Shown piece by piece: positions 23,064-63,753 of a stretch of DNA of 64,000 nucleotides. Each line of letters starts with the position of its first letter. Position 1 is the stretch's first letter. The position numbers and the translations under genes were made by a program. The DNA comes from a virus: IMG/VR virus record IMGVR_UViG_3300029922_000005, positions 1-64,000 of that record; one strand, given 5' to 3'. The notes below the pieces were generated by a model that saw only the letters and a program-made list of their open reading frames with translations, had not been told where the DNA came from and ran no database searches.

Positions 23064-23375
23064 CTATAAGTTAAAATTAGTTGCAGCATTTTTTAGTTTA
23101 ATTATTTCTTTATCTTTATCAAATATTAATATAGCATCTGGATAAATGATCCATCCTTTAGTATGACTAAAATCATAAAAATTAATTGTATATGATGCCA
23201 TAGTTCCAGTTTCATAATCAATTATTTTAAAAATTTTATTTGTTAATTTTTTCAAATAATATTTTTTTAATTCTGAATTTGAAAAACTTATATTATTCAC
23301 ATCAAGAATAACATAATCTCCTACTTCAGGTTTATCAGTATTATTTATTTCTTCAAATCTTTTTAAGTATTTCAT
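23064..23375 (-). CDS. Tagged cassette protein (GDYV type)
   Basis: A 103-residue protein with N-tag MKYLKRFEEINNTDKPEVGDYVIL and C-end AATNFNL. The PEVGDYV turn after the N-tag is shared with its upstream neighbours and looks like the first strand of a small beta barrel; the rest is unique. Last gene of a four-gene overlapping run. Confidence 0.78.
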   Translation of the reverse strand: MKYLKRFEEINNTDKPEVGDYVILDVNNISFSNSELKKYYLKKLTNKIFKIIDYETGTMASYTINFYDFSHTKGWIIYPDAILIFDKDKEIIKLKNAATNFNL

Positions 23376-23740
23376 ATGTTAAATTTATTTGCATTTTTTT
23401 TAATTTCTATTCGTTGTTTTAATTCTTCTTTTGTTTTTCCAATTGCATTTATATCCTCTAAATTAAATATTTTATTATAACCTCCATAAGGTTTATCATA
23501 TGGAAAAAACTTTAATACATTTTCTGGAATTTTAAATCCATATGTTACAATTATTCTATCATCATTAAAAAATGTATATATTTGTCCAGGATGATTAAGA
23601 AGATAATCTTTTAAATTATCAAGTTCTTTTTCATCATAGTATCTTTTTAAATGATTAATATATTTTTTACTTATTATTGAAACATAATCTCCTACTTCAG
23701 GCTTATTAGTAGTATTTTCAAATGTTTTTATATATTTCAT
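23372..23740 (-). CDS. Tagged cassette protein (GDYV type)
   Basis: A 122-residue protein: MKYIKTFENTTNKPEVGDYV at the start, a unique middle (HLKRYYDEKELDNLKDYLL), a KTKEELKQRIEIKK helix and terminal NANKFNI. Overlaps both neighbours by 4 nt. Confidence 0.78.
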   Translation of the reverse strand: MKYIKTFENTTNKPEVGDYVSIISKKYINHLKRYYDEKELDNLKDYLLNHPGQIYTFFNDDRIIVTYGFKIPENVLKFFPYDKPYGGYNKIFNLEDINAIGKTKEELKQRIEIKKNANKFNI

Positions 23741-24087
23741 ATGTTAAATTTATTTGCTTGTAATATAGCTTTTAATTCTTCTTTATTTTTAGAATATTTT
23801 ATAATATCTATTGCTTTCATAGAAAATCCATATTCATTATTTGATAGAAATATTTTAAAATTATTTAATTCAAATGGAATATTATCATATTGTATAATAT
23901 AATGTGTAGTTCCAGGAAATAATTTACCAGTAATTTCAACAAGTTTACCTATATTATTATTAATAAAATCATTAAATATTTTATATTTTTCATTATTATG
24001 ACCTTCATACCATTCACATATGACGTAATTTCCTACTTCAAGTTTATCAGTATTATTTATTTCTTCAAATGTTTTTATGTATTTCAT
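23737..24087 (-). CDS. Tagged cassette protein (GDYV-like)
   Basis: A 116-residue protein: MKYIKTFEEINNTDKLEVGN at the start, then a unique middle with LVEITGKLFPGTTHYIIQYD and an end helix NKEELKAILQANKFNI. Same overlapping operon; ATGA junctions on both sides. Confidence 0.78.
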   Translation of the reverse strand: MKYIKTFEEINNTDKLEVGNYVICEWYEGHNNEKYKIFNDFINNNIGKLVEITGKLFPGTTHYIIQYDNIPFELNNFKIFLSNNEYGFSMKAIDIIKYSKNKEELKAILQANKFNI

Positions 24088-24407
24088 AAATTAAATTTAT
24101 TTGCTGCAATTTTAAGTTTCAAATCCTCTTTGGTTTTAGAAAATGCATATATTTCGTTATATTGAAAATTTTTAAAATATCCATATTTTTCAATATATCC
24201 TAATAATTCTTTCATATTATCAGGTATATTTTTACCATATGATACCTCAACGCTATGTATATTATTTCCAATACTATAAAATTTAATTATTTTACCTGGA
24301 TAATTAAGAAAAAAATCTTTATAATCTTCATATCTACTATTTATTGAAACATAATCTCCTACTTCAGGCTTATTAGTAGTATTTTCAAATAATTTTAAGT
24401 ATTTCAT
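24084..24407 (-). CDS. Tagged cassette protein (GDYV type)
   Basis: First gene of the run. From ATG 24407 it starts MKYLKLFENTTNKPEVGDYV, matching the others, whereas an upstream ATG at 24473 would add an unrelated hydrophobic 22 residues. The end is KTKEDLKLKIAANKFNL. The 108-residue protein resembles the 23372 gene most. Confidence 0.78.
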   Translation of the reverse strand: MKYLKLFENTTNKPEVGDYVSINSRYEDYKDFFLNYPGKIIKFYSIGNNIHSVEVSYGKNIPDNMKELLGYIEKYGYFKNFQYNEIYAFSKTKEDLKLKIAANKFNL

Positions 24408-24491
24408 ATTATTATATATTAAAAAAATATAATTAAATTCCTCAATTGAAATAATTATAGTATTTTTGTACATAATATTAAATATAAATAT

Positions 24492-25016
24492 ATGGAACTA
24501 AAAGTAGTAGATTATAAGATATATAAAATTCATACCACACGTGAACAATATCGTGAGAATGCTATCAAATATGATTATGCATTAAAAAATAAAAATTGGG
24601 CTAACGATTTTGAAGGAATGATTGAAAAAAAATATTCTGGATATTCTGATGAAATAGGTTCATTTAGTGAGAATCATTATTTATTAAAAACTGTATTTGT
24701 TGGTGATAAATTTGATATAAATAAAGATTTTTATGATAAATGTAAAGAACCTTACTATAATATAGTAAATATTGAATTTAGAGAATATGGTGATAATTTG
24801 ACCGATGAAATTATTAAATCTAAATTTGAAGTAGTTAAACCAAATAAACCAACTACATATCCTAAATATAATAATGAAATTAAATTTAATTATGATAAAA
24901 AAAATGTTACAATTGAAAAAATATACTTTGATGGATATCAATGGCAATATAAATTAAAGAATATTGGGCATATTTATGATTATATTTCTGAAACTACTAT
25001 CAATAAATATAATTGA
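24492..25016 (+). CDS. Unknown 174-aa protein
   Basis: Divergent from the tagged run. Soluble, Tyr/Lys/Asn-rich, with no motif. N-terminal half is helical (TTREQYRENAIKYDYALKNK), C-terminal half strand-rich with a Pro-rich linker (VVKPNKPTTYPKY). A TATTTTTG -7-like box lies at 24461. Function unknown. Confidence 0.62.
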   Translation: MELKVVDYKIYKIHTTREQYRENAIKYDYALKNKNWANDFEGMIEKKYSGYSDEIGSFSENHYLLKTVFVGDKFDINKDFYDKCKEPYYNIVNIEFREYGDNLTDEIIKSKFEVVKPNKPTTYPKYNNEIKFNYDKKNVTIEKIYFDGYQWQYKLKNIGHIYDYISETTINKYN

Positions 25017-29779: not shown

Positions 29780-30232
29780 TTATAAATTAAATTTACTTGC
29801 TTCTTTTTTTAGTTTATATTGTTTATATTGTTCTGGATATTTGTCAATAATTTCTTTTCTATATTTATAATTTAAAACATCAAAAAAATCTTCATCATTT
29901 ACATTATCTTTTATGTTCCAATTTGCACCTGCTTTTATTAATTCATTCATAATTTGAATATTACTATAATATGAAGTATACCATAAAGCTGTTCTATTTA
30001 AATTATTAGTCAAATCTAAAATAGCTCCTGCTTTTATTAATTCTTTAACTCCTTCTAAAAAATCTTTATTAACTGATGTTATTAATGGAGTATTACCTTC
30101 CATTGTTTTGGAGTTTATATCAACATCAGTTTTTTCAATCAATTCCTTAATTTCTTCAATATTTTTAGTTCTAATATAAAAATATAGATTATCATTATTA
30201 TAATTATTTTCAAATTTTTTTAAGTATTTCAT
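29780..30232 (-). CDS. Tagged ankyrin-repeat protein
   Basis: A 150-residue protein with N-tag MKYLKKFENNYNND, at least two to three ankyrin units (EGNTPLITSVNKDF, RTALWYTSYYSN and KAGANWNIKDN), and C-end KKEASKFNL. Ankyrin repeats bind protein partners. It is the last of ten overlapping minus-strand genes. Confidence 0.82.
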   Translation of the reverse strand: MKYLKKFENNYNNDNLYFYIRTKNIEEIKELIEKTDVDINSKTMEGNTPLITSVNKDFLEGVKELIKAGAILDLTNNLNRTALWYTSYYSNIQIMNELIKAGANWNIKDNVNDEDFFDVLNYKYRKEIIDKYPEQYKQYKLKKEASKFNL

Positions 30233-30720
30233 ATGTTAAATTTACCTGCTTCTTTTTTAAGTTTATATTCTTCATATTTTTTAGGATAATTATCAATTAT
30301 ATATTGTAATATTATTGGATTTGAACTATTAATTCTACTAAAAATATCTAATCCTTTTATATTTTTAGTATTAAGATCAATTCCAGATTTCATTATTAAA
30401 TCAATAATATTATCAATTTTAAATTTATATGTGGTATAATTCCATTGATTATTATCTACAATATGAAATAAGCAATTTTCATTAACTCTATTTGTTAAAT
30501 TTACATCTGCTCCACTCTCAATTAACAATTTAATGATACTATAATTTAATTTAATTACAGCCTTAATTAATGGAGTTCTACTTTTACTAGAATCAAAGCA
30601 ATTAACATTAGCTCCATCTGTTATTAATTCTCTTACTTTTTGTAAAGATGATTTAGATTCAGAATATTTTAATAATTCATCATCTAATTCTTTCTGAGTA
30701 TATGTTATTAAATGTTTCAT
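30229..30720 (-). CDS. Tagged ankyrin-repeat protein
   Basis: A 163-residue protein whose N-tag is diverged (MKHLITYTQKELDDE) while the C-end KKEAGKFNI is standard. Ankyrin units: SRTPLIKAVIKLNYSIIKLL, ESGADVNLTNRVNENCLF. Overlaps both neighbours by 4 nt. Partner unknown. Confidence 0.8.
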   Translation of the reverse strand: MKHLITYTQKELDDELLKYSESKSSLQKVRELITDGANVNCFDSSKSRTPLIKAVIKLNYSIIKLLIESGADVNLTNRVNENCLFHIVDNNQWNYTTYKFKIDNIIDLIMKSGIDLNTKNIKGLDIFSRINSSNPIILQYIIDNYPKKYEEYKLKKEAGKFNI

Positions 30721-31235
30721 ATGTTAAATTTATTTGCTTCTTTTTTAAGTTTGTATTTTTCATATTGCGTAGGATATTTATTCATAATTTCTTTTGAATG
30801 TTTTATAGTTAAATAATCAAGAAATTCCAATTCATATTTATTAATAATATTCCAATCAGCTCCTTCTTCTATTAATAATTCCATAACATCATAATGATGT
30901 CTATCTGCAGCCCATATTAATGCACTTTTATTATCACAATCAACATAATCAATATTGGCGCCAGCATTCAATAGTTCTGTTGATATTTGTGCATATAAAT
31001 TATAATATTTAGATATATTATTTTTTATATAACAACTTAAAATTGAACATTTAATTAACGGAGTTCTATTCATCCAATTTACATCAATATTATCAATAAT
31101 ACATCCATTATCAATAGCATTTCTTATTTTTTTTAATAATTTTATAGCATCTGATTCATAATATATTTCATCTTCTAAAATATAATTCAAATCAGAATTC
31201 ATTATAGAAATCTCAAATTTTTTTAAATATTTCAT
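30717..31235 (-). CDS. Tagged ankyrin-repeat protein
   Basis: A 172-residue protein: MKYLKKFEISIMNSDL, then ankyrin units NRTPLIKCSIL, NAGANIDYVDCDNKSALIWA and EEGADWNIIN, ending KKEANKFNI. Its C-terminal 35 residues (MNKYPTQYEKYKLKKEANKF) closely match those of the ankyrin members at 29780 and 30229, so the C-terminal module is longer than the NKFNI tag itself. Confidence 0.82.
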   Translation of the reverse strand: MKYLKKFEISIMNSDLNYILEDEIYYESDAIKLLKKIRNAIDNGCIIDNIDVNWMNRTPLIKCSILSCYIKNNISKYYNLYAQISTELLNAGANIDYVDCDNKSALIWAADRHHYDVMELLIEEGADWNIINKYELEFLDYLTIKHSKEIMNKYPTQYEKYKLKKEANKFNI

Positions 31236-31738
31236 AAGTTAAATTGTTTTGCTAATTTTCTATCTGGATATTTATTATAAAACCAATTCCAATAACCTTC
31301 CAAATCATTATATGGTAAATTATTATTATAACATTGAAATTGTGTTACAGATTCTGGTAATTCTGGCAATTCAGATAAATTATTATTCTCGCATAAAAAA
31401 TATTCTAAATTACTTGGTAATTCTGGCAATTCTTCTAAATTATTACCACCACAAGATAAATTTATTAATGATTTTGGTAATTTAGGCAATGTTTTTAATT
31501 TATTCTCATGAATATATAATCCTGTTAATGTATCTGGTAATTCTGGCAACGTTTTTAATTCATTATTACCACAAAATAATTCTTCTAAATTACTTGGTAA
31601 TTCTGGTAATGATTTTAATTTATTGTGATGACAATCTAAATATGTTAATGTATCTGATAATTCAGGTAAAGACGTTAAACCTTTATTAGCAAGATTGAGT
31701 TTTGTTATTATATTTTCAAATCTTTTTATATATTTCAT
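31232..31738 (-). CDS. Tagged leucine-rich-repeat protein
   Basis: A 168-residue protein with N-tag MKYIKRFENIITKLNLANKG, then about six LRRs of the short bacterial type (LPELPDTLTGL-x-x-x-x-NKLKT), as in YopM/IpaH effectors, ending KLAKQFNL. There is no E3-ligase domain. The LRR arc would bind a host protein. Overlaps neighbours by 4-7 nt. Confidence 0.85.
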   Translation of the reverse strand: MKYIKRFENIITKLNLANKGLTSLPELSDTLTYLDCHHNKLKSLPELPSNLEELFCGNNELKTLPELPDTLTGLYIHENKLKTLPKLPKSLINLSCGGNNLEELPELPSNLEYFLCENNNLSELPELPESVTQFQCYNNNLPYNDLEGYWNWFYNKYPDRKLAKQFNL

Positions 31739-32112
31739 ATGTTAAATTTATTTGTATCTTTAAGATATGGTAATGCTTCTTTACTTGTTAACTTCCATTT
31801 TGAATTTAATGTTGTAATATTTCTAATTTTATCAAGTGTCATACTTGATAAAATATTAGGTTGTATATATCTATCTATCTTAAAATCAATTTTCATAAGA
31901 ATATTATATTCCTGTACATTAGCTGCATAAGCTATAATTTTAATAAAACTTTTATGATAAAATATATCATAATCTATATTATTTTCATCTAAAATATCAA
32001 TGTGCTCATATAGATCTTCATATACATTTTCATATTCAAAATATGTTTTAAACATTATATTATATCCATTTCTATCTATTTTCTTATCTTCATATTCTTT
32101 TATATATTTCAT
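31735..32112 (-). CDS. Tagged protein, unknown middle
   Basis: A 125-residue protein: MKYIKEYEDKKIDRNGYNI, a unique soluble alpha/beta middle, and DTNKFNI at the end. No repeats or motifs. Overlaps at both ends. Confidence 0.78.
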   Translation of the reverse strand: MKYIKEYEDKKIDRNGYNIMFKTYFEYENVYEDLYEHIDILDENNIDYDIFYHKSFIKIIAYAANVQEYNILMKIDFKIDRYIQPNILSSMTLDKIRNITTLNSKWKLTSKEALPYLKDTNKFNI

Positions 32113-32537
32113 AAGTTAAATTTATTTGTAGCGTTATTTAATTCCCATTGATAATATGTAGTTTCTTTTAATTCTTCAAATTTATCTTGAGAAACTTTTA
32201 ACGATGATGATATAAATATTTTTTCAAATGAAGAAGGATATGTGTTTATTATTTCCCTTCCAATATGAATTTTTTCATTTTCTTTTAATTCATGTTGATC
32301 TAGTTCACATATATAAGAAATAATATCTACATTCAGTTGAATACATTCATCAAAAATTTTTGGAGATAAAATTCTGCATAGTGCTAAATAATTATTTTGC
32401 TTGTTAAATTTCCAATTATAACTACCGGATTTATATATCATATAAAATCCTGAAGGATATTCAGTTATAAAATCATTAAATTGAATTTTTGATTTTATTT
32501 TATCTTTATAATTCTCATATATTTTAATATATTTCAT
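32109..32537 (-). CDS. Tagged protein, unknown middle
   Basis: A 142-residue protein: MKYIKIYENYKDKIKSKIQF ... NATNKFNL. The middle is helix-rich (IYKSGSYNWKF, LCRILSPKIFDECIQL) with no recognised domain, perhaps a diverged helical repeat. Confidence 0.78.
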   Translation of the reverse strand: MKYIKIYENYKDKIKSKIQFNDFITEYPSGFYMIYKSGSYNWKFNKQNNYLALCRILSPKIFDECIQLNVDIISYICELDQHELKENEKIHIGREIINTYPSSFEKIFISSSLKVSQDKFEELKETTYYQWELNNATNKFNL

Positions 32538-32878
32538 AAGTTAAATTTTTCTTCTGCTTCTTTTTTAATTAAATAGTTATTATATTCATTTGGATAATTT
32601 TTTATAATATTTTCATATTGCTTATCAGTCAATAAATATGTAAAATAGTAACCTTTATTATTTTTAACATTCCAATCTGCTCCTGCTTCAATTAAAATGT
32701 TAACTATCTGCATATAATCATGCTGTGCTGCATAAAATAATGGAGTACGACCATCAATAGCTTTAATATTTATATCAGTGCCAGTACGAATTAAATGTTT
32801 AATTCTATTAATATCACCTTTTAAAATTGCATTAAATAAATCAATGCCTTTATCTTCAAATAATTTTATATATTTCAT
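32534..32878 (-). CDS. Tagged ankyrin-repeat protein
   Basis: A 114-residue protein: MKYIKLFEDKGIDLFNAILK, then ankyrin units TDINIKAIDGRTPLFYAAQH and EAGADWNVKNNKG, and the end KKEAEEKFNL. About two full repeats only. Overlaps neighbours. Confidence 0.82.
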   Translation of the reverse strand: MKYIKLFEDKGIDLFNAILKGDINRIKHLIRTGTDINIKAIDGRTPLFYAAQHDYMQIVNILIEAGADWNVKNNKGYYFTYLLTDKQYENIIKNYPNEYNNYLIKKEAEEKFNL

Positions 32879-33186
32879 ATGTTAAATTTATTTATATTCT
32901 TCCAAAGTTCTGGATCAGTTGACATTCTAAAAAATGGTTCTTCTTTAAAATTATTATGAGTTATCCAATTTTCAACAGTAAATTTATTAATATCACTAGA
33001 TCCATTATAATATCTAAATGGTGGATATTCTAAATCTTCTATTTTTGCAAATGTATATGTGATTCCATTATAATCAATTAATTTAACTAAATATTTTTTA
33101 TTTTTATTATAATTACTATTAAAACTATAATATGATCCAATATTAAGATTTAATTCTATTTTTTCAAATGTTTTTATATATTTCAT
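32875..33186 (-). CDS. Tagged protein, beta-rich middle
   Basis: A 103-residue protein: MKYIKTFEKIELNLNIGSYY, a strand-rich middle (YLVKLIDYNGITYTFAKIED) and the end NINKFNI. A GSYYSF turn replaces GDYV, so it may be a related barrel. Confidence 0.76.
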   Translation of the reverse strand: MKYIKTFEKIELNLNIGSYYSFNSNYNKNKKYLVKLIDYNGITYTFAKIEDLEYPPFRYYNGSSDINKFTVENWITHNNFKEEPFFRMSTDPELWKNINKFNI

Positions 33187-33593
33187 ATGTTAAATTTATT
33201 TGAACTTATTATCAAATCAAAATCATCTTTATTTATTTGATTTATTATATAATCAACATGTTTAGCTGTTATGCTAAATGTATATATACAATTATATTCA
33301 TTTTTAACTAAATCTAATCCATCTATAGTTTCAAAATATTCTTCAATAATATTAAATTCATCATGAATATTTGATAATTTCAAATAAGTTTCTCCTAATA
33401 TTATAGCAAATTCAAATGTTGTTGAAGAAGGTGTCTTTGAATAAAAAGATATTTCATTATGATATTTATATATTTTATTATAATTTGAAGTTAGATTAAA
33501 ATCTAATGATAATATAAAATTTACTAAAAAATTCATAAAATAAGCACTATTATCAGTTAAATCATATTTCTCAAATGTTTTTATATATTTCAT
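33183..33593 (-). CDS. Tagged protein, unknown middle
   Basis: First gene of the ten-gene run. A 136-residue protein: MKYIKTFEKYDLTDNSAYF ... ISSNKFNI. Central YHNEISFYSKTPSSTTFEFA has no known match. No clear promoter is visible just upstream; the PPK2-HAD gene ends 19 nt before its ATG on the same strand, so readthrough is likely. Confidence 0.76.
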   Translation of the reverse strand: MKYIKTFEKYDLTDNSAYFMNFLVNFILSLDFNLTSNYNKIYKYHNEISFYSKTPSSTTFEFAIILGETYLKLSNIHDEFNIIEEYFETIDGLDLVKNEYNCIYTFSITAKHVDYIINQINKDDFDLIISSNKFNI

Positions 33594-33611: not shown

Positions 33612-35261
33612 TTATTTATTATTATTATTTAACTTTTCAATTGCTTCATTCATAATATCATCTGTTATACCTAATTCATGAGTGGTTTTAACAATATGTT
33701 TTTTATTAAATACATCATATAAATCATGCTTATTATCATCTATAATTATAAAATTACTAACTATTTTATTATTTTTCAACCAATCTTTTATATCGGCACC
33801 TCTTTTTTTAGATTTGTCATTTGGAACACAGTCATATATTTTATATTTAAAACCTGCTTTTTTCATCATATCTTCTATTTTACTTTTAGGTTTATCATCT
33901 CTATATGATGAAGATAAAACAACTTTAGCATCTGTTTTTTCAATTATTGTGTTTAAATTACTCATGGCAGTTTTACTCCATTTATCAGGCTCATTAAAAA
34001 ATTTATGATAATTTACATCAGAATTTTTATTATAAGGAATAAGTGGTCCATCAATATCTTCAAATATTACTTTTATTCCTCCATCTTTTTCTTTTTCTTT
34101 ATCTTTTTCAATAGTTTTTATTATACCATTAAATGATTCTAATCTGGAATAATTTTCATCATCTGCATCTATTATTATCCAAGGAGCATTTTTAGTATTT
34201 GTTTTTTTGAAAATTTCATTTATATATTTAGTAAATTCGTCCCATTTATCTAAAGTTTGTTCATCATTCTTACTAAATTTCCAATATTTTAATGGGTTAG
34301 ATTTTCTTAATTCAAACCTCATTTTTTGTACATCCTGAGATATAGAAAACCATATTTTTATAAGTATTATATCATCATCAATTAATTTATCTTCAAAATT
34401 ATTGACTTCTTTCATGAATTTATTATATTTATCTTCATTTGAATATCCCATTACAGGTTCTACATAACCTCTTGTATACCAAGATCTATCAAAGAACACA
34501 ATTTCACCGTTTTTAGGTAACACTTTTTCATATCTTTCAAACCAATTATCACTTTCTTCTTCTGAAGGAATACCAAAAGTTTGAACTTTAAAATGCTTAG
34601 GATCAAGAAATCTTGTTATATTTCTAATTGCAGATCCTTTTCCTGCTGCATCTCTACCTTCAAATATAATTAACACTTTTTTATTATTATATACAATCCA
34701 CTCTTGTAATTTCAATAATTCTATTTGATATTTATATTTTGTTTTTTGATAATCATCAAAAGGTACTTTATTTATTTTAATATCTATTTTATTATATGGT
34801 TCATATGACTTATCAGTTTCAATTTTATTGTAGAAAAATTCATAAGTGTTATCTATATATCTATCAACATTATCAAGATATGCTTTGAAAACACTATCTG
34901 CATTCTTTATATTAATATCAAATGAATTTGTTATAGAATATATTTTTAGAATATCATTAGCAAATTTACCTAATCTCATCTGTTTAATTATATCATCATC
35001 TACATTATTTAAAAAATCTTTAAATAAATCTTTAAATTTACCCATAGTATTTTTATTATAATTATTTAATAAATATGTTTTATATGATTCTAAATCTTCT
35101 TTAATTTGAGTTTTATAGAAATCTAATGTGTATTTTTTATCAATAGATTGCTTCAAATTTATAATTAAGCTTTTAAAAGAATGAATAAGGTTTTCCAATT
35201 CATCTTTACTACGATGAAAAAAAGCTTCATTTAGTTTATTATAATCATTATAGTTTAACAT
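33612..35261 (-). CDS. PPK2 polyphosphate kinase-HAD fusion
   Basis: A 549-residue protein with three parts. Residues 1-165: helical, unknown, opening MLNYNDYNKLNEAFF, an N-tag-like start. Residues about 170-390: PPK2 kinase with Walker A EGRDAAGKGSA near 200, Walker B FFDRSWYTRG near 255, and IKIWFSIS with a late WIIIDADDENYSR. Residues about 395-549: HAD-like domain with FEDIDGPLIP, LSSSYRDD and FIIIDDNKHDL. PPK2 makes NTPs or NDPs from polyphosphate. The attached HAD phosphatase is unusual; it could act on nucleotides or RNA ends. Confidence 0.85.
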   Translation of the reverse strand: MLNYNDYNKLNEAFFHRSKDELENLIHSFKSLIINLKQSIDKKYTLDFYKTQIKEDLESYKTYLLNNYNKNTMGKFKDLFKDFLNNVDDDIIKQMRLGKFANDILKIYSITNSFDINIKNADSVFKAYLDNVDRYIDNTYEFFYNKIETDKSYEPYNKIDIKINKVPFDDYQKTKYKYQIELLKLQEWIVYNNKKVLIIFEGRDAAGKGSAIRNITRFLDPKHFKVQTFGIPSEEESDNWFERYEKVLPKNGEIVFFDRSWYTRGYVEPVMGYSNEDKYNKFMKEVNNFEDKLIDDDIILIKIWFSISQDVQKMRFELRKSNPLKYWKFSKNDEQTLDKWDEFTKYINEIFKKTNTKNAPWIIIDADDENYSRLESFNGIIKTIEKDKEKEKDGGIKVIFEDIDGPLIPYNKNSDVNYHKFFNEPDKWSKTAMSNLNTIIEKTDAKVVLSSSYRDDKPKSKIEDMMKKAGFKYKIYDCVPNDKSKKRGADIKDWLKNNKIVSNFIIIDDNKHDLYDVFNKKHIVKTTHELGITDDIMNEAIEKLNNNNK

Positions 35262-35350
35262 TAGGCACTAATATTTTTATTTGTATTATATATAAAAAAA
35301 TAAGATCGTTATTTTATATTAAACTATTTTTATTTATGAATAATTATTTA

Positions 35351-36599: not shown

Positions 36600-36899
36600 A
36601 TGAAATATATAAAAACTTTTGAATTCGTTAGCAGAGAAGTAGATTTACCAATAGGATATTATGTTATTCCTGCTCTTAAAGGAATAAATTATGATATTCA
36701 ATATAAAAATAAAATCAGTAATAATATTTTTCAAATAATAAATAAAAGTAAGACACAATTTAAAATTGATTTTAAAGATTATTATCATGAAGATGGGTTT
36801 TGGATTGACAAAAAAGATGTTTATAAATTCTCAGGAAGTAAAAAAGTACTACAAGATAAATTGGAATTAATGAAACAAACGAATAAATTTAACTTATGA
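36600..36899 (+). CDS. Tagged cassette protein
   Basis: A 99-residue plus-strand member: MKYIKTFEFVSREVDLPIGY, beta-rich middle (YYVIPALKGINYDIQ), end MKQTNKFNL. Overlaps the next tagged gene by 4 nt, so the junction structure is the same on either strand. Confidence 0.78.
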   Translation: MKYIKTFEFVSREVDLPIGYYVIPALKGINYDIQYKNKISNNIFQIINKSKTQFKIDFKDYYHEDGFWIDKKDVYKFSGSKKVLQDKLELMKQTNKFNL

Positions 36900-37288
36900 T
36901 AACAAATTTTAAACTATATGAAATAATAAAAAAATCTCCAACTAAAAAAGCATTAGCAAGAGATTATAAAATAGGAGATTATGTTATATGTGAATGTAAA
37001 ACATCATTTACATTTCCTGAACTTCCTGAACTTAATGAATTTACATTGAATAATATCGGACAAATAATAGATATTTTGGATATAAGAAGACGTAGTGATA
37101 TTTATGTTGTTCAATTTGATTATATTCCAGAAATATTAAGACCTGGATTCCAAATCAAATATAATAAAGCTGATATAAATAAAAAATATGAAAATTCAAT
37201 AACTTTTAATAGAGAAGATATAAAATATTTATCAGATGATAAATCAGATTTAGAAACATTAATATCAGCAAATAAATTTAATTTATAA
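36896..37288 (+). CDS. Tagged cassette protein, diverged N-tag
   Basis: A 130-residue protein: MITNFKLYEIIKKSP (tag-like FKLYE), then YKIGDYVICECKT, the GDYV turn, and the end SANKFNL. The middle IGQIIDILDIRRRSDIYVVQ matches the SH3-like reading of other GDYV members. Confidence 0.75.
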   Translation: MITNFKLYEIIKKSPTKKALARDYKIGDYVICECKTSFTFPELPELNEFTLNNIGQIIDILDIRRRSDIYVVQFDYIPEILRPGFQIKYNKADINKKYENSITFNREDIKYLSDDKSDLETLISANKFNL

Positions 37289-37289
37289 T

Positions 37290-37829
37290 TTATTTATATA
37301 AAATATTTTTCATATTTTTTGCATTATCTGATTGACCATCAAACGCTTCTACTTCCCAAGGACGTTGATCATAATTCATATCTGATATATCAACCACTTC
37401 ATTCAACCATAAATATGCACCACTTTTGCTAATGATTAATGTTTTATCATAATATTGTTTTAAATGAATTAATTCATGAGATAATATAGTAATATTTTGA
37501 CTTCTATCATAATTTCCAATAAGAATATAATATATATCATTAGAATCCACTATATATGCTTTTAATTCAATATCTTCTCCATTAATTTCTTCTGATGTCT
37601 GTTGAATATTTTTAATTATAACAGTTACGGTATCAATTTTAAGTGATCTTAGTCCTGATTCTACTATAGTATCTAAATATGATTTATTAGTTAAATTATA
37701 AATATGATGATATTTATAAAATTCAATTTTATCAAATGGTTTATCTTTAACTGTAGATAATTTATAAATTATAAATGTAACTATTAGTAAAGATAAAATT
37801 ATTATTCCAATTTTTATTATTTTGCTCAT
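37290..37829 (-). CDS. Membrane-anchored HExxH protein
   Basis: A 179-residue protein with an N-terminal anchor (residues 5-24, IGIIILSLLIVTFIIYKL) and a zincin motif SHELIHLKQYY (HExxH) at about 135, followed by a Trp/Glu-rich end. Likely a periplasmic or membrane-side metallopeptidase-like protein. The substrate is unknown and the third zinc ligand is not obvious. Confidence 0.65.
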   Translation of the reverse strand: MSKIIKIGIIILSLLIVTFIIYKLSTVKDKPFDKIEFYKYHHIYNLTNKSYLDTIVESGLRSLKIDTVTVIIKNIQQTSEEINGEDIELKAYIVDSNDIYYILIGNYDRSQNITILSHELIHLKQYYDKTLIISKSGAYLWLNEVVDISDMNYDQRPWEVEAFDGQSDNAKNMKNILYK

Positions 37830-38353
37830 TTGTGAGTTATTTTTTTTAAAGATTCAATTATTAAATTTATATTAGCATTAATCCAACCGCATAATTGATT
37901 AGATATTATATTCTCAGTTTCTCTATCCTTTTTAGCTAAATTTAACCAATATGATAAAGGTTTTACTGCTAAATTATATTTATTACCACCTAACCATAAA
38001 GAATTGATTGTAGCAGAATATTTATTTGTTGATCTATTTATTCCATTTGGATTAACTTCTATGTTTTTTATTACATTAAATATAGTATTTGTAGGATCTG
38101 ATTTTTTTAATTGAATTATCATTGCTTCATCTTCAATAATCTCATCATTAATGAGTCTATTTAGAGAATTTATTGATATTATTGATTTAGTAACTACTTG
38201 TTCAGTTAATTTACCAATAGGTAATAATAAATTTTTAAGTTGTTCTATTAATTTATTTGCTTTTATTCCTGCGTTATACCTAGTATTTTCAGGAGTAAAA
38301 CCATCAGTTAGTACATCTTCATTGTATTTATCAAAACTTTTTATATTTTTCAT
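37826..38353 (-). CDS. Protein with N-tag only
   Basis: A 175-residue protein starting MKNIKSFDKYNEDVLTDGFT, a variant of the N-tag with D for E, but ending LKKITHK without NKFNL. Middle is helical with no known domain. ATGA overlap with the HExxH gene. Confidence 0.68.
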   Translation of the reverse strand: MKNIKSFDKYNEDVLTDGFTPENTRYNAGIKANKLIEQLKNLLLPIGKLTEQVVTKSIISINSLNRLINDEIIEDEAMIIQLKKSDPTNTIFNVIKNIEVNPNGINRSTNKYSATINSLWLGGNKYNLAVKPLSYWLNLAKKDRETENIISNQLCGWINANINLIIESLKKITHK

Positions 38354-43119: not shown

Positions 43120-43123
43120 ATTA

Positions 43124-54913: not shown

Positions 54914-54948
54914 TTAAAAAAAGCATCAATTAAATTGATTCTTTTTTA
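54914..54948. terminator. Bidirectional terminator
   Basis: ATCAATT/AATTGAT stem with A and T runs, between converging genes. Confidence 0.75.
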
Positions 54949-55452
54949 TAAGTTAAAGTTTGAAGATGCTAAATGAAGAGGTAAATTTTCAGTTATAACA
55001 TCATATAAAATTTTGAATTCATCAATTATATCACCCATTGTTTTAGATTTTTTAATAATATTTTCTATTATAGGTGAATATATTTCAGTTAATTCAGTGT
55101 ATACGTTATCTGGCATTTTCCTAATCTCAATTTTTGATGGACCTCCTATAAATCCATTAATTGGTGATGTATGATATTTAATTCTATTAACTGAATATTT
55201 TGGATTCATTGATTGCATAGCTGATTCCCTCTCTTTTTCTGTTATTATAATTTTTCTTAATTCAGGATCATTTAAGCATTCAGATTTTTCTATTATTTGT
55301 TCAATAATACCATAAATTGGAGAGCATGACCGATAATTAGTACCATAAGTCATATTTCCGTTACTGTTATTTATAGTAATATTAAAATCTTTATTCTTAT
55401 ATAAAGTAATTTCTCTCTCTTTCTGTTTTTCAAACGTTTTTAAATATTTCAT
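54946..55452 (-). CDS. Tagged protein, unknown middle
   Basis: A 168-residue protein: MKYLKTFEKQKEREITLYKN, a mixed middle (TYGTNYRSCSPIYGIIEQII) and the end LASSNFNL. It ends near the terminator; not overlapped by neighbours on its 5' side. Confidence 0.75.
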   Translation of the reverse strand: MKYLKTFEKQKEREITLYKNKDFNITINNSNGNMTYGTNYRSCSPIYGIIEQIIEKSECLNDPELRKIIITEKERESAMQSMNPKYSVNRIKYHTSPINGFIGGPSKIEIRKMPDNVYTELTEIYSPIIENIIKKSKTMGDIIDEFKILYDVITENLPLHLASSNFNL

Positions 55453-55734: not shown

Positions 55735-56073
55735 TTATAAGTTGAATTTATCTGATGTCAGTTCAAAATCTTGAAGTTTAACCTTTCCCATAAATAATGC
55801 ATGATCTCTATTATCTGGTTCTAATTTTAAAATCCATTCAAAATATTCATCATAATCATCTGTTAAGCTATTATATTGTTTAACTTTTTCTTTATAAATA
55901 TATACAAGAACATTTTCATTAGTATACCAAAGGCACCAATCTTCAATTAAATCATCTGGTACTCCTATCTTTTTTAAAGACAATCTAAAATATGGTTGCA
56001 ATAATGTTACTTGCCAATATTTATCCTCATATTTCCAATCACCATATTTTTCAAATGTATTTATATATTTCAT
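55735..56073 (-). CDS. Tagged protein, unknown middle
   Basis: A 112-residue protein: MKYINTFEKYGDWKYEDKYW, aromatic-rich middle (LLQPYFRLSLKKIGVPDDLI), end LTSDKFNL. Last in an eight-gene overlapping run to 58252. Confidence 0.76.
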   Translation of the reverse strand: MKYINTFEKYGDWKYEDKYWQVTLLQPYFRLSLKKIGVPDDLIEDWCLWYTNENVLVYIYKEKVKQYNSLTDDYDEYFEWILKLEPDNRDHALFMGKVKLQDFELTSDKFNL

Positions 56074-56405
56074 AGATTAAAATTTTTTGCTTTTATTTTA
56101 TATTCTAAATCTTCTTTATTTTCAGAATAATCAATAATACTACTATATAAAAATTCTCTAAATCCAATATTATGATTAAGATTATAATTCTCATATCCAA
56201 ATAAACTTGCAATCTCCATAGGTATATCTTCGTATTCAACACTTACTGTATTGAAATGATATTTTATTTCAATTTTTATAATTTTACCAATAGTATTATC
56301 AATAAAATCAGTCATTTCTTTATTCTGCATGGAAGATTTCATTAATACATAATCTCCTACTTTTGGTTCATCTTTAATATTTTCAAATTTCTTTATATAT
56401 TTCAT
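56070..56405 (-). CDS. Tagged cassette protein (GDYV type)
   Basis: A 111-residue protein: MKYIKKFENIKDEPKVGDYV, DTIGKIIKIEIKYHFNTVSV, ENKEDLEYKIKAKNFNL (KNFNL in place of NKFNL). Same family as the 23-24 kb run. Confidence 0.78.
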   Translation of the reverse strand: MKYIKKFENIKDEPKVGDYVLMKSSMQNKEMTDFIDNTIGKIIKIEIKYHFNTVSVEYEDIPMEIASLFGYENYNLNHNIGFREFLYSSIIDYSENKEDLEYKIKAKNFNL

Positions 56406-56713
56406 AAGTTAAATTTATTTGCTTGTAATTTCAATTTTAATTCTTCAATTGTTTTTCCATATTCCACTAATAATTCGATATCAAAAATTCTTGTACCATC
56501 ATGAAAAAATAAATCTATATTATCTGGTATATTTTCATATCTAACTCTACATTTATATTTTTTTAAATTTGGATCGAATTCTACAGCTGTTAATCTACCA
56601 AAATTTTTAGTTACAAAATTTATAACGCTATTAGTACTATAACTATTCATTAAAACATAATCACCAACTTCTGGTAAATCAATATTATTTTCAAATTTCT
56701 TTATATATTTCAT
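56402..56713 (-). CDS. Tagged cassette protein (GDYV type)
   Basis: A 103-residue protein: MKYIKKFENNIDLPEVGDYV, KNFGRLTAVEFDPNLKKYK, KTIEELKLKLQANKFNL. Confidence 0.78.
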   Translation of the reverse strand: MKYIKKFENNIDLPEVGDYVLMNSYSTNSVINFVTKNFGRLTAVEFDPNLKKYKCRVRYENIPDNIDLFFHDGTRIFDIELLVEYGKTIEELKLKLQANKFNL

Positions 56714-56961
56714 AAATTAAATTTATTGGTATTTAATAATAATTCAAAATTTTCAATTTCTAATGAAGTTAAAAATCTTAAAATTTGTTCTTTAATAATT
56801 CCAATTTTACATATTTCATTTTGAACTAAATAAAATGACTCGTCTTTTTTAATTATTTTAGCATCAAATGTATAGTTATTTTGTCTATATTTTATATAAT
56901 CACCAACTTTACAATCGTTAGGATTAAATAATTTCTTTTCAAATCTTTTTATATATTTCAT
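56710..56961 (-). CDS. Short tagged cassette protein
   Basis: An 83-residue protein, the shortest complete member: MKYIKRFEKKLFNPNDCKVG, DYIKYRQNNYTFDAKIIKKD, then FELLLNTNKFNL. Confidence 0.76.
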   Translation of the reverse strand: MKYIKRFEKKLFNPNDCKVGDYIKYRQNNYTFDAKIIKKDESFYLVQNEICKIGIIKEQILRFLTSLEIENFELLLNTNKFNL

Positions 56962-57455
56962 AAGTTAAATTTATCTATATTATTATATAATCCAGGAATA
57001 CTATAAATATTTCTAAAATATTTCGGAGTCATAAATTTTTCCTTCTTACAATCATAAACAAAAACTACTTCAATTTTTCTATAATCTTTTAAAAATACAT
57101 GAATATCTCCAAATTCTGCTGATTCACCATCGTAATTGACTCCTAATACAAAATCTGGTCCTTCACTTACATAATCAAATTCATATTGATTGATAGCATT
57201 TACTCCATCTTTTATTGATTTTGGAGTACCATCAAACCAATCGCAAACATCTATAGCAGCAGAGATATAATCATTATCTGTTACATCATCAGCCATTCCA
57301 AATGCATATTCTAAAATTTGATGATTTAATGGTATAGGATCATCAGAAGGTAACGGCTTACCATTACAAAAACTAAGTGCAATTTCTGGTGTAACTTCTA
57401 AATAAAATTCAGCATCATTTTGATCTAAACTTTCAAACCTTTTTATATATTTCAT
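56958..57455 (-). CDS. Tagged protein, unknown middle
   Basis: A 165-residue protein: MKYIKRFESLDQNDAEFYLE, an acidic alpha/beta middle (SAAIDVCDWFDGTPKSIKDG; FVLGVNYDGESAEFGDIHVF), and NNIDKFNL. Confidence 0.76.
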   Translation of the reverse strand: MKYIKRFESLDQNDAEFYLEVTPEIALSFCNGKPLPSDDPIPLNHQILEYAFGMADDVTDNDYISAAIDVCDWFDGTPKSIKDGVNAINQYEFDYVSEGPDFVLGVNYDGESAEFGDIHVFLKDYRKIEVVFVYDCKKEKFMTPKYFRNIYSIPGLYNNIDKFNL

Positions 57456-57697
57456 AAGTTAAATTTAATTGTTTGATTAACTTGTTCAGGATCTTTTAAT
57501 ATTCTATATAATTCTAACCATCTTGTTATTTCTTCATATTCATCATCATCATATCTCCATTCATTTGGTAAAGTTGGATCATGAACTATTTCGTCATCAT
57601 CATAAAGAATTTCAAATTTTTCTCCTATTAATACATTGAGTTCTTCCTTCGTAACTCTTATTATTTTTTTGCTACTCAAAGCATATAACGCTATCAT
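57452..57697 (-). CDS. Half cassette with C-tag only
   Basis: An 81-residue protein: MIALYALSSKKIIRVTKEEL ... NQTIKFNL. It has the C-end but not the N-tag. Its body is paralogous to the next gene (KIIRVTKEELNVLIGEKFEI against KIIKVTQEELDALIDNDFTV; EWRYDDDE against EWRYDSDE). Confidence 0.7.
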   Translation of the reverse strand: MIALYALSSKKIIRVTKEELNVLIGEKFEILYDDDEIVHDPTLPNEWRYDDDEYEEITRWLELYRILKDPEQVNQTIKFNL

Positions 57698-57941
57698 GCC
57701 TTCTAAATGATTTTAAAAACTTTTTTATATCATCTTCTTCATCTGAATCATATCTCCATTCATCTAGATGATTTGAATCATATCTAATTCTTTCATTATC
57801 ATAAAGAACTGTAAAATCATTGTCTATTAATGCATCAAGTTCTTCTTGAGTTACTTTTATAATTTTAGAATCATTATCTAAATTTATTAAATTAATCATA
57901 TTTTCTTTTTTCCTTGATTCAAATGTTTTTATGTATTTCAT
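57672..57941 (-). CDS. Half cassette with N-tag only
   Basis: An 89-residue protein: MKYIKTFESRKKENMINLIN ... KKFLKSFRRHDSVICFE. It has the N-tag but lacks the C-end. It overlaps the half cassette by 26 nt. The pair reads as one cassette whose core was duplicated between the ends. Confidence 0.7.
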   Translation of the reverse strand: MKYIKTFESRKKENMINLINLDNDSKIIKVTQEELDALIDNDFTVLYDNERIRYDSNHLDEWRYDSDEEDDIKKFLKSFRRHDSVICFE

Positions 57942-58252
57942 AAGTTAAATTTATTTGCACTATCATTAAGTTCAATTCGGTTATATAATTCTTCTGTTGT
58001 TATTTCTTTACCAAATTCATCAACTAATTTATATGAAAAATTTAATAATCCTTCTTCAAGAATAATATGCTCAATTGTATATTGTATTAACGATTTTTTA
58101 TCATTTTTATAATCCTTTTCATATTGTATATAATAACTATCTTTAATCAAATCATCAAAAGGAATATGACGTTTATCAACTGGTATAGTAACAATAGCGA
58201 ATATTCCTGTAATGCTATCAGTTGAATTTTCATTAAATTTTTTTATTTTCAT
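57938..58252 (-). CDS. Tagged cassette protein, N-tag variant
   Basis: A 104-residue protein: MKIKKFNENSTDSITGIFAI ... LNDSANKFNL. First gene of the eight-gene run; divergent from the plus-strand pair at 58312. Confidence 0.75.
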   Translation of the reverse strand: MKIKKFNENSTDSITGIFAIVTIPVDKRHIPFDDLIKDSYYIQYEKDYKNDKKSLIQYTIEHIILEEGLLNFSYKLVDEFGKEITTEELYNRIELNDSANKFNL

Positions 58253-58311
58253 ATTAATAATTGATTTTATCTATATATAAAATTTATAAGTTATTTTTTA
58301 TATATAAAGAT

Positions 58312-58827
58312 ATGAAACATTTGAAATTATATGAGGAATTAAAATTCAATGAGAAACAATACCATACTTATGAACTATTGAATCTTGTTCAGATGCATGA
58401 TTTAGGTTCAAAAGGAGAAGCTGAAATGATTGATATGATAAATTCTGGACAAATAGATTTAAATTTACAAGATCAACTAAGTTATAGAACAGCTTTAATA
58501 TATTCTATGATTAATAGATATGAAAAAGTATTTGATGAATTGATAAAATCAGATGTGAATTTAGATTTACAAGATGATAATGGAAATACAGCATTAATAA
58601 TCTCAGCAATAGGTAGCACTGGAAGTAGTAGTGATTATTATAAATCTATAATGGAAAAATTAATTGATGCAGGAGCAGATTGGAATAAAACACAAAATTA
58701 TGGACGTGAAAAAGATTTTCTTGAACATATACAAGATAACGAATTTAAAAGACATATATTAAAGAAATATCATAAACAATATGAAATATATTTAATGATA
58801 AAAACTTCTGAAAAATTTAATATATGA
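58312..58827 (+). CDS. Tagged ankyrin-repeat protein
   Basis: From ATG 58312: MKHLKLYEELKFNEKQYHTY, ankyrin units LQDQLSYRTALIYSMI, LQDDNGNTALIISAIG and DAGADWNKTQNYG, ending KTSEKFNI, 171 residues. The TTG at 58261 would add 17 hydrophobic residues and is unlikely. Confidence 0.82.
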   Translation: MKHLKLYEELKFNEKQYHTYELLNLVQMHDLGSKGEAEMIDMINSGQIDLNLQDQLSYRTALIYSMINRYEKVFDELIKSDVNLDLQDDNGNTALIISAIGSTGSSSDYYKSIMEKLIDAGADWNKTQNYGREKDFLEHIQDNEFKRHILKKYHKQYEIYLMIKTSEKFNI

Positions 58828-59297
58828 AATATATAAAAACATTTGAACAAAATTTAGATTTAAATAATGAATTAATAGACTCTTGTATAAATAATAATAT
58901 AAAAAAAGTTGAAAGTTTAATAAAACAAGGAGCTGATGTTAATTATATCAATAAAGATGGTTTCAACTCATTAATATATTCTGTTAATAATATTGATATT
59001 TTAAAAATATTAATTAAAAACGGAGCGGATGTAAATATCCAAGATACTACAAATCAAGGTTATACACCATTATTACTAGCATCCTCTAATAGATTTATGT
59101 TTCCTTATATCGAAAATTATGATACTATAAAATTATTAATAGATTCAGGAGCTGATTGGAATGTTAAAGGTAGAATTGTTAAAATTACTTTTTTTGATTA
59201 TTTACCTACTGAAATTAAAGAAAAAATTAAAAAAGATTATCCAGATAAATATGAAGATTATTTATTACAACAAGAAGCTGAAAAATTCAACATATAA
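58824..59297 (+). CDS. Tagged ankyrin-repeat protein
   Basis: A 157-residue protein: MKYIKTFEQNLDLNNELIDS, ankyrin units KQGADVNYINKDGFNSLIYS, KNGADVNIQDTTNQGYTPLL and DSGADWNVKGRIV, ending QEAEKFNI. 4-nt overlap with the preceding gene, then terminator. Confidence 0.84.
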   Translation: MKYIKTFEQNLDLNNELIDSCINNNIKKVESLIKQGADVNYINKDGFNSLIYSVNNIDILKILIKNGADVNIQDTTNQGYTPLLLASSNRFMFPYIENYDTIKLLIDSGADWNVKGRIVKITFFDYLPTEIKEKIKKDYPDKYEDYLLQQEAEKFNI

Positions 59298-62660: not shown

Positions 62661-62668
62661 TTTATAAT

Positions 62669-63277
62669 ATGAATAAGGTAGATATAGTTTGCATATTGGA
62701 TATGTCTGGCTCAATGGGGTCGATAATAGTAAAAGCGAGAGAAGGATTTAACAAATTCTTAACGGAACAAAAGGAAAATGGAAATAAAATAAATTTTTCA
62801 TTGATGTTTTTTGATACAAGTTTTTATATGCCATATAAAAACGTTGACATTAAAGAAGTAAATGAACTTAATGAAAACACTTATTATGCTAATGGTGGTA
62901 CTAGTTTATATGATGCGTTAGGATTTGCTTCAGATAATTATATAAAGCAACTAGGATCAACTAAAAAAAGTAAAAGAAGTGATAAAACATTATTTGTTAT
63001 ATTAACAGACGGAGAAGAAAATTCTTCTACTATATATAGTCGTGATATGATTAAATTAATGGTGACAGATATGAGAGAAAATTTAAATATTGAATTTATT
63101 TATTTAGGTGCAAATCAAGATTCATGTTTTGTCGCAGAATCAATGGGAATGAGTAGAAGCAATTCATTTAATTATGATGCTACGAATGACGGAATAATAG
63201 TAGCATATTCAAATATTTCTGCTGCAACGACTTATTATACCGAAAATAATGTAAAGGATAATCTTTTCCAAAAATAA
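62669..63277 (+). CDS. von Willebrand A domain protein
   Basis: A 202-residue vWA domain with a full MIDAS set: DIVCILDMSGSMGS (DxSxS, with M at x), FFDTSF, ANGGTSLYDAL (the Thr), and FVILTDGEENSS. Similar to TerY-type and other vWA proteins, which bind a metal ion and mediate protein assembly. Coupled to the zinc-ribbon protein; TerY systems also combine vWA and zinc-ribbon proteins, which makes a link to stress or chemical-tolerance modules possible. Confidence 0.82.
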   Translation: MNKVDIVCILDMSGSMGSIIVKAREGFNKFLTEQKENGNKINFSLMFFDTSFYMPYKNVDIKEVNELNENTYYANGGTSLYDALGFASDNYIKQLGSTKKSKRSDKTLFVILTDGEENSSTIYSRDMIKLMVTDMRENLNIEFIYLGANQDSCFVAESMGMSRSNSFNYDATNDGIIVAYSNISAATTYYTENNVKDNLFQK

Positions 63278-63311
63278 AGATAAAATAGTGAGATTTAATG
63301 AACCTTAAATA

Positions 63312-63344
63312 ACAAAAAAGAGAATCAATTGATTCTCTTTTTTT
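63312..63344. terminator. Bidirectional terminator
   Basis: AGAGAATCAA/TTGATTCTCT stem at 63320-63339 with A and T runs; ends the vWA operon and the minus-strand genes. Confidence 0.85.
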
Positions 63345-63753
63345 ATAAATTAAATTTTAATGCATTTAGATAAATTTCGTAATTTTCTTTTGATATATCA
63401 TTTATAATATTATCTATTTCTGTGATTTTTATTCTACCTAATTCTGAATATTTATCCATTATATATTTTATAAATTTTGATATTTTTTCTATTTCTGAAT
63501 CTATCCATCCTGGATTATCTAGTATAGTATTAATATCAAACAAAAAATAATCATTATTTGTGGATAATCTTAAATTTAAAAAATAATTTCTTTGTATATC
63601 ATTTTTATTATAACTAAACGCATAATCACAATTATATTCATATGAATAAATAATTTCATTTTGATTTTTATTTATAAAATTATGTATATAATAAGCGAGT
63701 TCTTGAATTTTCTCTTTACTATTTGATTTTTCAAACTTTTTAATATATTTCAA
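63343..63753 (-). CDS. Tagged protein, unknown middle
   Basis: A 136-residue protein: MKYIKKFEKSNSKEKIQELA ... LNALKFNL. Helical middle. One-base gap to the next gene. C-end is ALKFNL. Confidence 0.74.
   Translation of the reverse strand: MKYIKKFEKSNSKEKIQELAYYIHNFINKNQNEIIYSYEYNCDYAFSYNKNDIQRNYFLNLRLSTNNDYFLFDINTILDNPGWIDSEIEKISKFIKYIMDKYSELGRIKITEIDNIINDISKENYEIYLNALKFNL

What the first reader, a model, noticed from the sequence alone, without database searches (positions are those of the whole stretch)
23064..63753. About 30 proteins with common N- and C-terminal tags and unrelated middles
Seen: on both strands, genes start MKY[IL]K-x-[FY]E and end [NS]-K-F-N-[LI]. The middles are ankyrin repeats, leucine-rich repeats, small GDYV beta domains or unknown. 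Known: T4 internal proteins share a short N-terminal capsid-targeting sequence that the prohead protease removes after a Glu, and are injected with the DNA. Inference: this may be an analogous tag for packaging variable effector proteins into the head. The T4 analogy is mine and the conserved C-end has no T4 counterpart.
Basis: partly seen in the sequence, partly recalled or inferred. Interest (0 to 1): 0.92.

Follow-up and report, generated by a model that had tools for sequence, protein, structure and literature searches.

The report
Two-ended cargo tags in huge phages
A huge bacteria-infecting virus makes about 70 small, otherwise unrelated proteins that share the same short start and the same last few letters; the start closely resembles the address label that phage T4 uses to load proteins into its head, while the shared ending is a second label with no known counterpart.

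Summary
32 genes in the window (68 in the 181-kb record) carry MKY[IL]Kx[FY]E-like starts and/or K-[FY]-N-[LI] ends on unrelated middles (ankyrin, LRR, SH3-like barrel, unknown). Related contigs add up to 480 non-redundant C-tagged proteins in about 114 groups.

The record is a fragment of a T4-related huge Bacteroidetes-type phage. Tag-bearing relatives encode a T4-type prohead protease fused to a scaffold made of 14-residue repeats, YSEYIAE|N, nearly the T4 capsid-targeting sequence MKTYQEFIAE|A. Orthologous cargo genes swap the short tag for T4-like tags (MKYIKEYE for MKTYQQFNE) and keep the C-end. In the related phage PAU, three of four annotated 'internal capsid proteins' start MK[ST][IL]xxLYE. 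Tag operons share a late-like promoter motif with tail-fibre and endolysin genes.

It is not supported for hypervariability, and cleavage after Glu8 is untested. The C-end is under protein-level selection: 0 of 51 orthologs lost it, and synonymous sites are free. It is absent as a shared end from the 735-kb relative and PAU. I infer a second, lineage-specific sorting or retention signal. No virion proteomics was available.

The parts
23064..23375 (-). tagged gene, GDYV barrel; terminal gene of its operon, end NFNL kept
23372..23740 (-). tagged gene, GDYV barrel, KFNI
23737..24087 (-). tagged gene, GDYV barrel, KFNI; AF2 model has disordered residues 1-11 and a C-terminal helix
24084..24407 (-). 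tagged gene, GDYV barrel, KFNL, leader of its operon (start at 24407)
24413..24427 (-). late-like promoter motif TTTTTTTAATATATA before the 23064-24407 operon
29780..30232 (-). tagged gene, ankyrin repeats, KFNL
30229..30720 (-). ankyrin protein, diverged N-tag MKHLITYT, KFNI
30717..31235 (-). tagged gene, ankyrin, KFNI
31232..31738 (-). tagged gene, leucine-rich repeats, KQFNL
31735..32112 (-). tagged gene, unknown fold; relatives replace MKYIKEYE by the T4-like MKTYQQFNE
32109..32537 (-). tagged gene, unknown, KFNL
32534..32878 (-). tagged gene, ankyrin, KFNL; AF2 model has disordered residues 1-7, fold starts at residue 10
32875..33186 (-). tagged gene, KFNI
33183..33593 (-). tagged gene, unknown, KFNI
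33612..35261 (-). PPK2-HAD enzyme with targeting-sequence-like start MLNYNDYNKLNEAFF, no KFN end; possible cargo
35287..35300 (-). late-like promoter motif before the PPK2-HAD gene and the 29780-33593 tag operon
36600..36899 (+). tagged gene, GDYV-like barrel, KFNL
36896..37288 (+). C-tagged gene, N-tag variant MITNFKLYE, KFNL; convergent gene follows
37826..38353 (-). N-tag-like gene MKNIKSFDKYNED without C-end
38361..38374 (-). late-like promoter motif before 38353
42808..43146 (-). C-tagged gene (likely start MKILKFNEH), KFNL
43124..43573 (-). tagged gene, leucine-rich repeats, KFNI
43570..44142 (-). tagged gene, ankyrin, KFNI
44139..44462 (-). tagged gene, GDYA barrel, KFNL
44459..44902 (-). 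tagged gene, leader, KFNI
54946..55452 (-). tagged gene, unknown, NFNL
55735..56073 (-). tagged gene, MKYINTFE, KFNL
56070..56405 (-). tagged gene, GDYV barrel, NFNL
56402..56713 (-). tagged gene, GDYV barrel, KFNL
56710..56961 (-). tagged gene, GDYI barrel-like, KFNL
56958..57455 (-). tagged gene, unknown, KFNL
57452..57697 (-). C-tagged paralog without N-tag
57672..57941 (-). N-tagged paralog without C-end (neighbour of the previous)
57938..58252 (-). C-tagged gene, N-variant MKIKKFNEN, leader, KFNL
58294..58306 (+). late-like promoter motif TTTTTTATATATA before 58312
58312..58827 (+). tagged gene MKHLKLYE, ankyrin, KFNI
58824..59297 (+). tagged gene, ankyrin, KFNI; terminal gene of its operon

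Best explanation
These genes encode the internal-protein cargo of a T4-related huge phage head. The N-terminal 8-12 residues act as a capsid-targeting sequence: a flexible peptide resembling one repeat of the phage's own protease-scaffold core, by which each cargo protein joins the prohead core and which the prohead protease may then trim after a Glu. Genes are transcribed late in polycistronic, translationally coupled cassettes together with virion genes. The C-terminal helix ending K-F-N-[LI]-COOH is a second, lineage-specific linear motif on the same cargo, most likely recognised by another head, portal or ejection component, or by a stability factor. Shown: tag identity, coupling, protein-level constraint on the C-end, presence of a T4-type protease and repeat scaffold on tag-bearing relatives, tag interchange with T4-like sequences, and a shared promoter motif. 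Inferred: packaging, cleavage, ejection, late timing, and the role of the C-end.
For: (1) Ortholog swap: the 31735-32112 protein (MKYIKEYED) is 55% identical in body to L066 (MKTYQQFNE) and has the same KFN end. The L013:17008 family carries MKTYLQYIKEA, MKKYKEFINEA and MKIQKYSQFNEA. T4 ipII and ipIII start MKTYQEFIAEA. (2) Tag-bearing contigs G029, G022 and G027 encode the T4-type prohead protease (E <= 2.5e-82), fused to a scaffold with 12 repeats such as YSEYIAEN; the 735-kb relative has the same architecture (phrog_207, 1.3e-27). (3) Cleavage logic: N-terminal sequencing gives mature PAU capsid protein as 520 of 585 residues (PMC5646251), i.e. a cut near ALME|NYQ; in the capsid alignment of relatives the first invariant residue after Met1 is a Glu (E44), which lies in the corresponding N-terminal region, and the lineage sequence there reads SMNE|N, like scaffold IAE|N and tag E|N. 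(4) In PAU, 3 of 4 proteins annotated 'internal capsid protein', and the annotated scaffold, begin MK[ST][IL]xxLYE (about 18 such genes; p about 8e-4). (5) The 735-kb phage LR756501 has 59 starts of the form [FY]xx[FYLI][ILV]xE, with P3 I/L/V in 55 and P1' mostly A/N/S/E. (6) Late-like motif T5+A0-2TATATA precedes 9/14 and 10/22 leader genes of tag operons (p 2e-5, 5e-6), plus a collagen tail fibre, an M15 endolysin and a 1061-aa virion-like gene, and 0 of 24 leaders of the other C-end class. (7) AF2: residues 1-7 or 1-11 disordered, fold begins right after; the C-tag ends a helix in two unrelated folds. (8) C-end: 0 of 51 ortholog pairs lost it; identical-residue codons drift as in the body (0.79 vs 0.78).
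Against: No virion data exist for this phage. The record itself lacks the protease and the full capsid gene. In the short tag MKY[IL]Kx[FY]E the P3 residue is unconstrained, unlike [ILM]xE sites, so cleavage there is doubtful. The N-tag is hardly better conserved than the body by raw identity between G000 and G001 (0.70 vs 0.64), and 6 of 29 orthologs vary from the pattern. PAU annotations come from a GenBank record whose evidence I could not see, and gp70, also annotated 'internal capsid protein', has no tag. About 10 C-tagged ORFs lack a recognisable N-tag. KFN codon bias (AAC; ATA as last codon) suggests some nucleotide-level constraint too.
Confidence: 0.72

Rival explanations
1. The conserved ends are nucleic-acid signals: AT-rich start codons and the AAATTTAAYNTATGA junction serve translation initiation or coupling of ATGA-overlapping genes, and the protein motifs are by-products.
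For: 22 neighbouring tagged pairs overlap as ATGA; Asn codon AAC and last codon ATA are over-represented; N-tag codons drift slightly less than body codons (0.86 vs 0.78).
Against: Terminal genes followed by terminator-like hairpins keep KFN[LI]; Tyr replaces Phe in 77 of 480 and L/I/V/M exchange at the last position; C-end codons drift like the body; T4-like N-tags with different DNA occur in orthologs.
Confidence: 0.08
2. Recombination cassettes: shared ends are homology arms that let accessory genes be shuffled, with no address function.
For: Modular operons, unrelated middles, about 114 similarity groups with the same ends.
Against: Synonymous sites in the ends are not specially conserved; tagged genes are as syntenic as other small genes between 76%-identical phages (59/66 vs 141/171).
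Confidence: 0.07
3. N-tag is a capsid-targeting sequence as proposed, but the C-end is a stability or solubility element (for example protection from host C-terminal degradation) rather than a sorting signal.
For: C-end caps a terminal helix in two unrelated folds; it is lineage-specific, which fits a host-specific proteolysis context; a different C-end (R..KL.KL) marks other small proteins of the same genome.
Against: Strict K-[FY]-N-[LI] specificity exceeds what a generic cap needs; coupling with the N-tag suggests a cargo-specific role.
Confidence: 0.3
4. Tagged proteins are not virion cargo but late cytoplasmic proteins steered to another phage structure (assembly factory, membrane or replication compartment).
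For: No proteomic proof of packaging; some phages build such compartments (general knowledge).
Against: Tag resembles both the T4 targeting sequence and the phage scaffold repeat; PAU internal capsid annotations.
Confidence: 0.15

Closest known systems
T4 internal proteins IPI, IPII, IPIII and their capsid-targeting sequence (PMC3012670)
   Same: short N-terminal tag ending in Glu, unrelated bodies, T4-type prohead protease and scaffold in the lineage; orthologs here use near-T4 tags (MKTYQQFNE)
   Different: dozens of proteins instead of three, including ankyrin, LRR and barrel folds; main tag form MKY[IL]Kx[FY]E; extra conserved C-end; scaffold fused to the protease and built of tag-like repeats
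Sphingomonas/Sphingobacterium phage PAU internal capsid proteins (GenBank JQ362498)
   Same: about 18 small genes start MK[ST][IL]xxL[YF]E, many inside the head gene cluster, three annotated internal capsid protein
   Different: no shared C-end seen among those genes; no ankyrin or LRR cargo recognised
735-kb uncultured huge phage LR756501 and relatives
   Same: homologous protease-scaffold repeats, capsid protein and 1144-aa virion-like protein; 59 starts of the FINEA type
   Different: no KFN[LI] ends as a class; instead a YGEExW (mostly DPYGEE[DNE]W) motif in 84 proteins
Ejection proteins of SPN3US/phiKZ-type giant phages (PMC10052503)
   Same: internal cargo processed by a prohead protease after Glu
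   Different: mostly long propeptides (over 100 residues), A-x-E site; no short universal tag
Encapsulin cargo-loading peptides
   Same: short terminal peptide loads unrelated cargo into an HK97-fold shell (general knowledge)
   Different: single-ended system of cellular shells; no sequence relation tested

Membership tests
T4-type capsid-targeting sequence / internal proteins | shared short N-terminal tag on otherwise unrelated bodies | tested here: met
T4-type capsid-targeting sequence / internal proteins | tag sequence of the T4 kind ([FY]xx[FY]IxE, or interchangeable with it) | tested here: met
   ortholog swaps MKYIKEYE / MKTYQQFNE, and the MKTYLQYIKEA family; the dominant short form differs from T4
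T4-type capsid-targeting sequence / internal proteins | phage encodes a T4-type prohead protease and scaffold core | tested here: met
   on tag-bearing relatives G029, G022, G027; not found on this fragment
T4-type capsid-targeting sequence / internal proteins | tag ends in a prohead protease site | tested here: inconclusive
   long tags fit [ILV]xE|[ANS] and match the capsid protein site; short tags have Glu but free P3
T4-type capsid-targeting sequence / internal proteins | proteins present inside virions and ejected | not testable with these tools
   only indirect: PAU annotations
T4-type capsid-targeting sequence / internal proteins | bodies evolve faster than other genes (a usual trait of T-even internal proteins, not a strict criterion) | tested here: not met
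   median identity 62.9 vs 64.1, presence 59/66 vs 141/171 between G000 and G001
T4-type capsid-targeting sequence / internal proteins | expression with virion genes in time for head assembly | tested here: inconclusive
   shared late-like motif with tail fibre, endolysin and a virion-like gene; portal, protease and capsid genes were not among motif-bearing leaders; no transcript data
Encapsulin-like C-terminal loading peptide | C-terminal peptide binds shell interior | not tested
   no complex prediction available

The most novel reading that the evidence does not exclude
Cargo of these huge phages carries a two-ended address: an N-terminal peptide that mimics one scaffold repeat and drives co-assembly into the prohead, and an independent C-terminal K-[FY]-N-[LI]-COOH motif read by a second phage component that retains or ejects the cargo. 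Different huge-phage lineages use different second motifs (DPYGEE[DNE]W in the 735-kb phage), and another class of small proteins in the same genome bears yet another end (R..KL.KL).
Probability: 0.35. Interest if true: 0.87.

Novelty: new variant of a known kind. Interest (0 to 1): 0.74.

Why it matters
If the tag is a capsid-targeting sequence, huge phages deliver tens of different proteins with their DNA, so a simple N-terminal (and C-terminal) profile turns many hypothetical genes of huge phages into predicted virion cargo, directly testable by mass spectrometry. The match between cargo tag and scaffold repeat offers a concrete mechanism for how T4-type tags work. A universal C-terminal motif on phage cargo would be a new kind of sorting signal and a possible loading tag for engineered phage heads in laboratory strains.

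Tried and rejected
Megablast of the cluster against named phages: no match. T4 gp21 Pfam and phrog_207 family searches on this record and relatives: no hit over cut-off; replaced by an alignment search, which found the protease on three tag-bearing contigs. First viral-contig scan with the protease alignment returned only closer relatives of LR745206. The idea that tags are only translation signals or recombination arms was tested by codon and ortholog analysis and mostly rejected. Hypervariable-effector idea tested and not supported. Foldseek of the GDYV barrel: only weak chromo/tudor/SH3-like and phage hypothetical matches, none below E 0.001. Pfam and PADLOC on the barrel family: nothing consistent. 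Literature: no paper found in the held library describing these tags; the library excludes most subscription journals.
Full report
1. What is there. The window is bases 1-64000 of a 181,039-base virus record. ORF analysis confirms 32 genes with the shared start and/or end between 23064 and 59297: 24 match MKY[IL]Kx[FY]E, 30 end in [KNQ]FN[LI], 23 have both, and 22 neighbouring pairs overlap as ATGA. The rest of the record raises the count to 68. Chance expectation for the C-end is below 0.1 gene, and the motif is almost never internal. N-tag and C-end are strongly associated, p = 3e-34.

2. Where it comes from. A 1144-aa protein (L013:6469-9903), probably a virion protein (inference), matches uncultured huge phages of 634-735 kb, Prevotella Lak phages and Tenacibaculum phages. 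The record is thus a fragment of a T4-related huge phage of the Bacteroidetes-infecting kind (host inferred from relatives). A DNA pattern for the end/start junction found over 100 stretches in IMG/VR contigs, up to 330 kb. From those, 480 non-redundant proteins with the C-end fall into 114 similarity groups. The logos are K 468/480, F or Y, N, I or L at the end, and M-K-Y-[IL]-K-x-[FY]-E at the start.

3. The middles. Pfam gives ankyrin and leucine-rich repeats. The largest recognisable fold is a barrel with GDYV; its AlphaFold model (pLDDT 84) has a disordered residue 1-11 segment and a C-terminal helix, and only weak SH3, chromo or tudor-like matches. The ankyrin model (pLDDT 90) is disordered exactly over residues 1-7, folds from residue 10 and ends in a helix carrying the C-end.

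4. N-tag as capsid-targeting sequence. T4 ipII and ipIII, read from the T4 record, start MKTYQEFIAEA. Three observations link the window tag to it. First, orthologs interchange tags: 31735-32112 (MKYIKEYED) and L066 (MKTYQQFNE) are 55% identical in body and both end NKFN[LI]; another family carries MKTYLQYIKEA, MKKYKEFINEA or MKIQKYSQFNEA. Second, the 735-kb relative has 59 proteins starting with [FY]xx[FYLI][ILV]xE; residue P3 is I, L or V in 55 of them and P1' is mostly A, N, S or E. Third, in phage PAU, three of four proteins annotated internal capsid protein plus the annotated scaffold begin MK[ST][IL]xxLYE, with about 18 such genes, many between portal, protease and capsid genes.

5. Machinery. 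The 735-kb phage encodes portal, prohead protease fused to a scaffold, and a gp23-like capsid protein in a row. Tenacibaculum phage PTm1 has the same genes, annotated as portal, prohead core scaffolding protein and protease, and major capsid protein. Three tag-bearing contigs carry the protease. Its scaffold part contains 12 repeats at mostly 14-residue spacing, such as YSEYIAENLDKSI, which match the T4 tag YQEFIAE in five of seven positions. The reading that the cargo tag imitates a scaffold repeat, and so co-assembles, is my inference. PAU capsid protein loses about 65 residues by N-terminal sequencing (PMC5646251), placing the cut at or next to ALME|NYQ. In the capsid alignment the first invariant residue after Met1 is a Glu, and the lineage sequence SMNE|N there resembles scaffold IAE|N and tag E|N; that this Glu is the cut site in the relatives is inference. 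For the short tag, P3 is free, so trimming after Glu8 is possible but not shown.

6. Expression. Upstream of leader genes of tag operons a motif T5+A0-2TATATA is enriched (9/14 vs 12/111 in this record; 10/22 vs 14/213 in G001; p 2e-5 and 5e-6). The untagged leaders with it include a collagen-repeat tail fibre, an M15 endolysin, the 1061-aa virion-like gene and the PPK2-HAD gene with a targeting-like start. None of 24 leaders of small genes with a different C-end (R..KL.KL) has it. The motif was found by k-mer comparison on the same data, so its p-values are optimistic. I read it as a late promoter; this is inference.

7. The C-end. It is kept in terminal genes followed by hairpins, with free Phe codons and Tyr replacing Phe. 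In 51 ortholog pairs between this phage and a 76%-identical relative none lost it, while identical-residue codons drift as in the body (0.79 vs 0.78) and untagged controls have only 58% identity at the last four residues. So selection acts on the peptide. A bias to AAC and ATA codons remains unexplained. As a shared ending it is absent from the 735-kb relative and from the tagged PAU genes. Its function is open; sorting or retention is my first guess, stability the second.

8. What is not supported. Tagged genes are no more variable or less syntenic than untagged genes of the same size between G000 and G001, so the hypervariable-effector part of the idea fails in this comparison; against more distant contigs tagged homologs were somewhat less identical. 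No known effector domain was identified in the tagged proteins scanned.

9. Verdict. Works like the T4 internal-protein system: likely (0.72). Membership is formally incomplete, because virion presence could not be tested and cleavage of the short tag is inconclusive. New variant of a known kind, with a possibly new C-terminal signal.

Noticed in passing
window 338-562, 3360-3581, 51430-52346 and others; L011:14126-18027: A second class of small proteins (44 in the record, 52 in G001) shares a different C-end, R..KL.KL, has no N-tag, and none of 24 leader genes has the late-like motif; tandem arrays of GDKLLCKK-type proteins belong here.
   Followed up: partly
L149-L185 (LR756501, 735 kb): 84 proteins contain YGEExW, mostly DPYGEE[DNE]W at the extreme C-end or just after the N-tag.
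   Followed up: partly
window 33612-35261: PPK2 polyphosphate kinase fused to a HAD RNA-repair-type domain, with a start MLNYNDYNKLNEAFF resembling a targeting sequence and a late-like motif: possibly a packaged enzyme.
   Followed up: partly
window 57452-57941: Adjacent paralogs in which one copy has only the N-tag and the other only the C-end.
   Followed up: no
L009:11208-12062: Protein matching the C-terminal part of the gp23-like capsid protein (E 6.5e-6), possibly a capsid paralog or vertex protein; similar copies in many tag-bearing contigs.
   Followed up: no
C-ends of tagged genes: Asn codon AAC (genome 9%) is strongly over-represented in KFN, and ATA rather than ATT is used as last codon even in non-overlapping genes.
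   Followed up: partly
L013:17005-17826: C-tagged protein with a T4-like targeting start and a conserved body (73% identical in a relative), matching only PHROGs of unknown function.
   Followed up: partly
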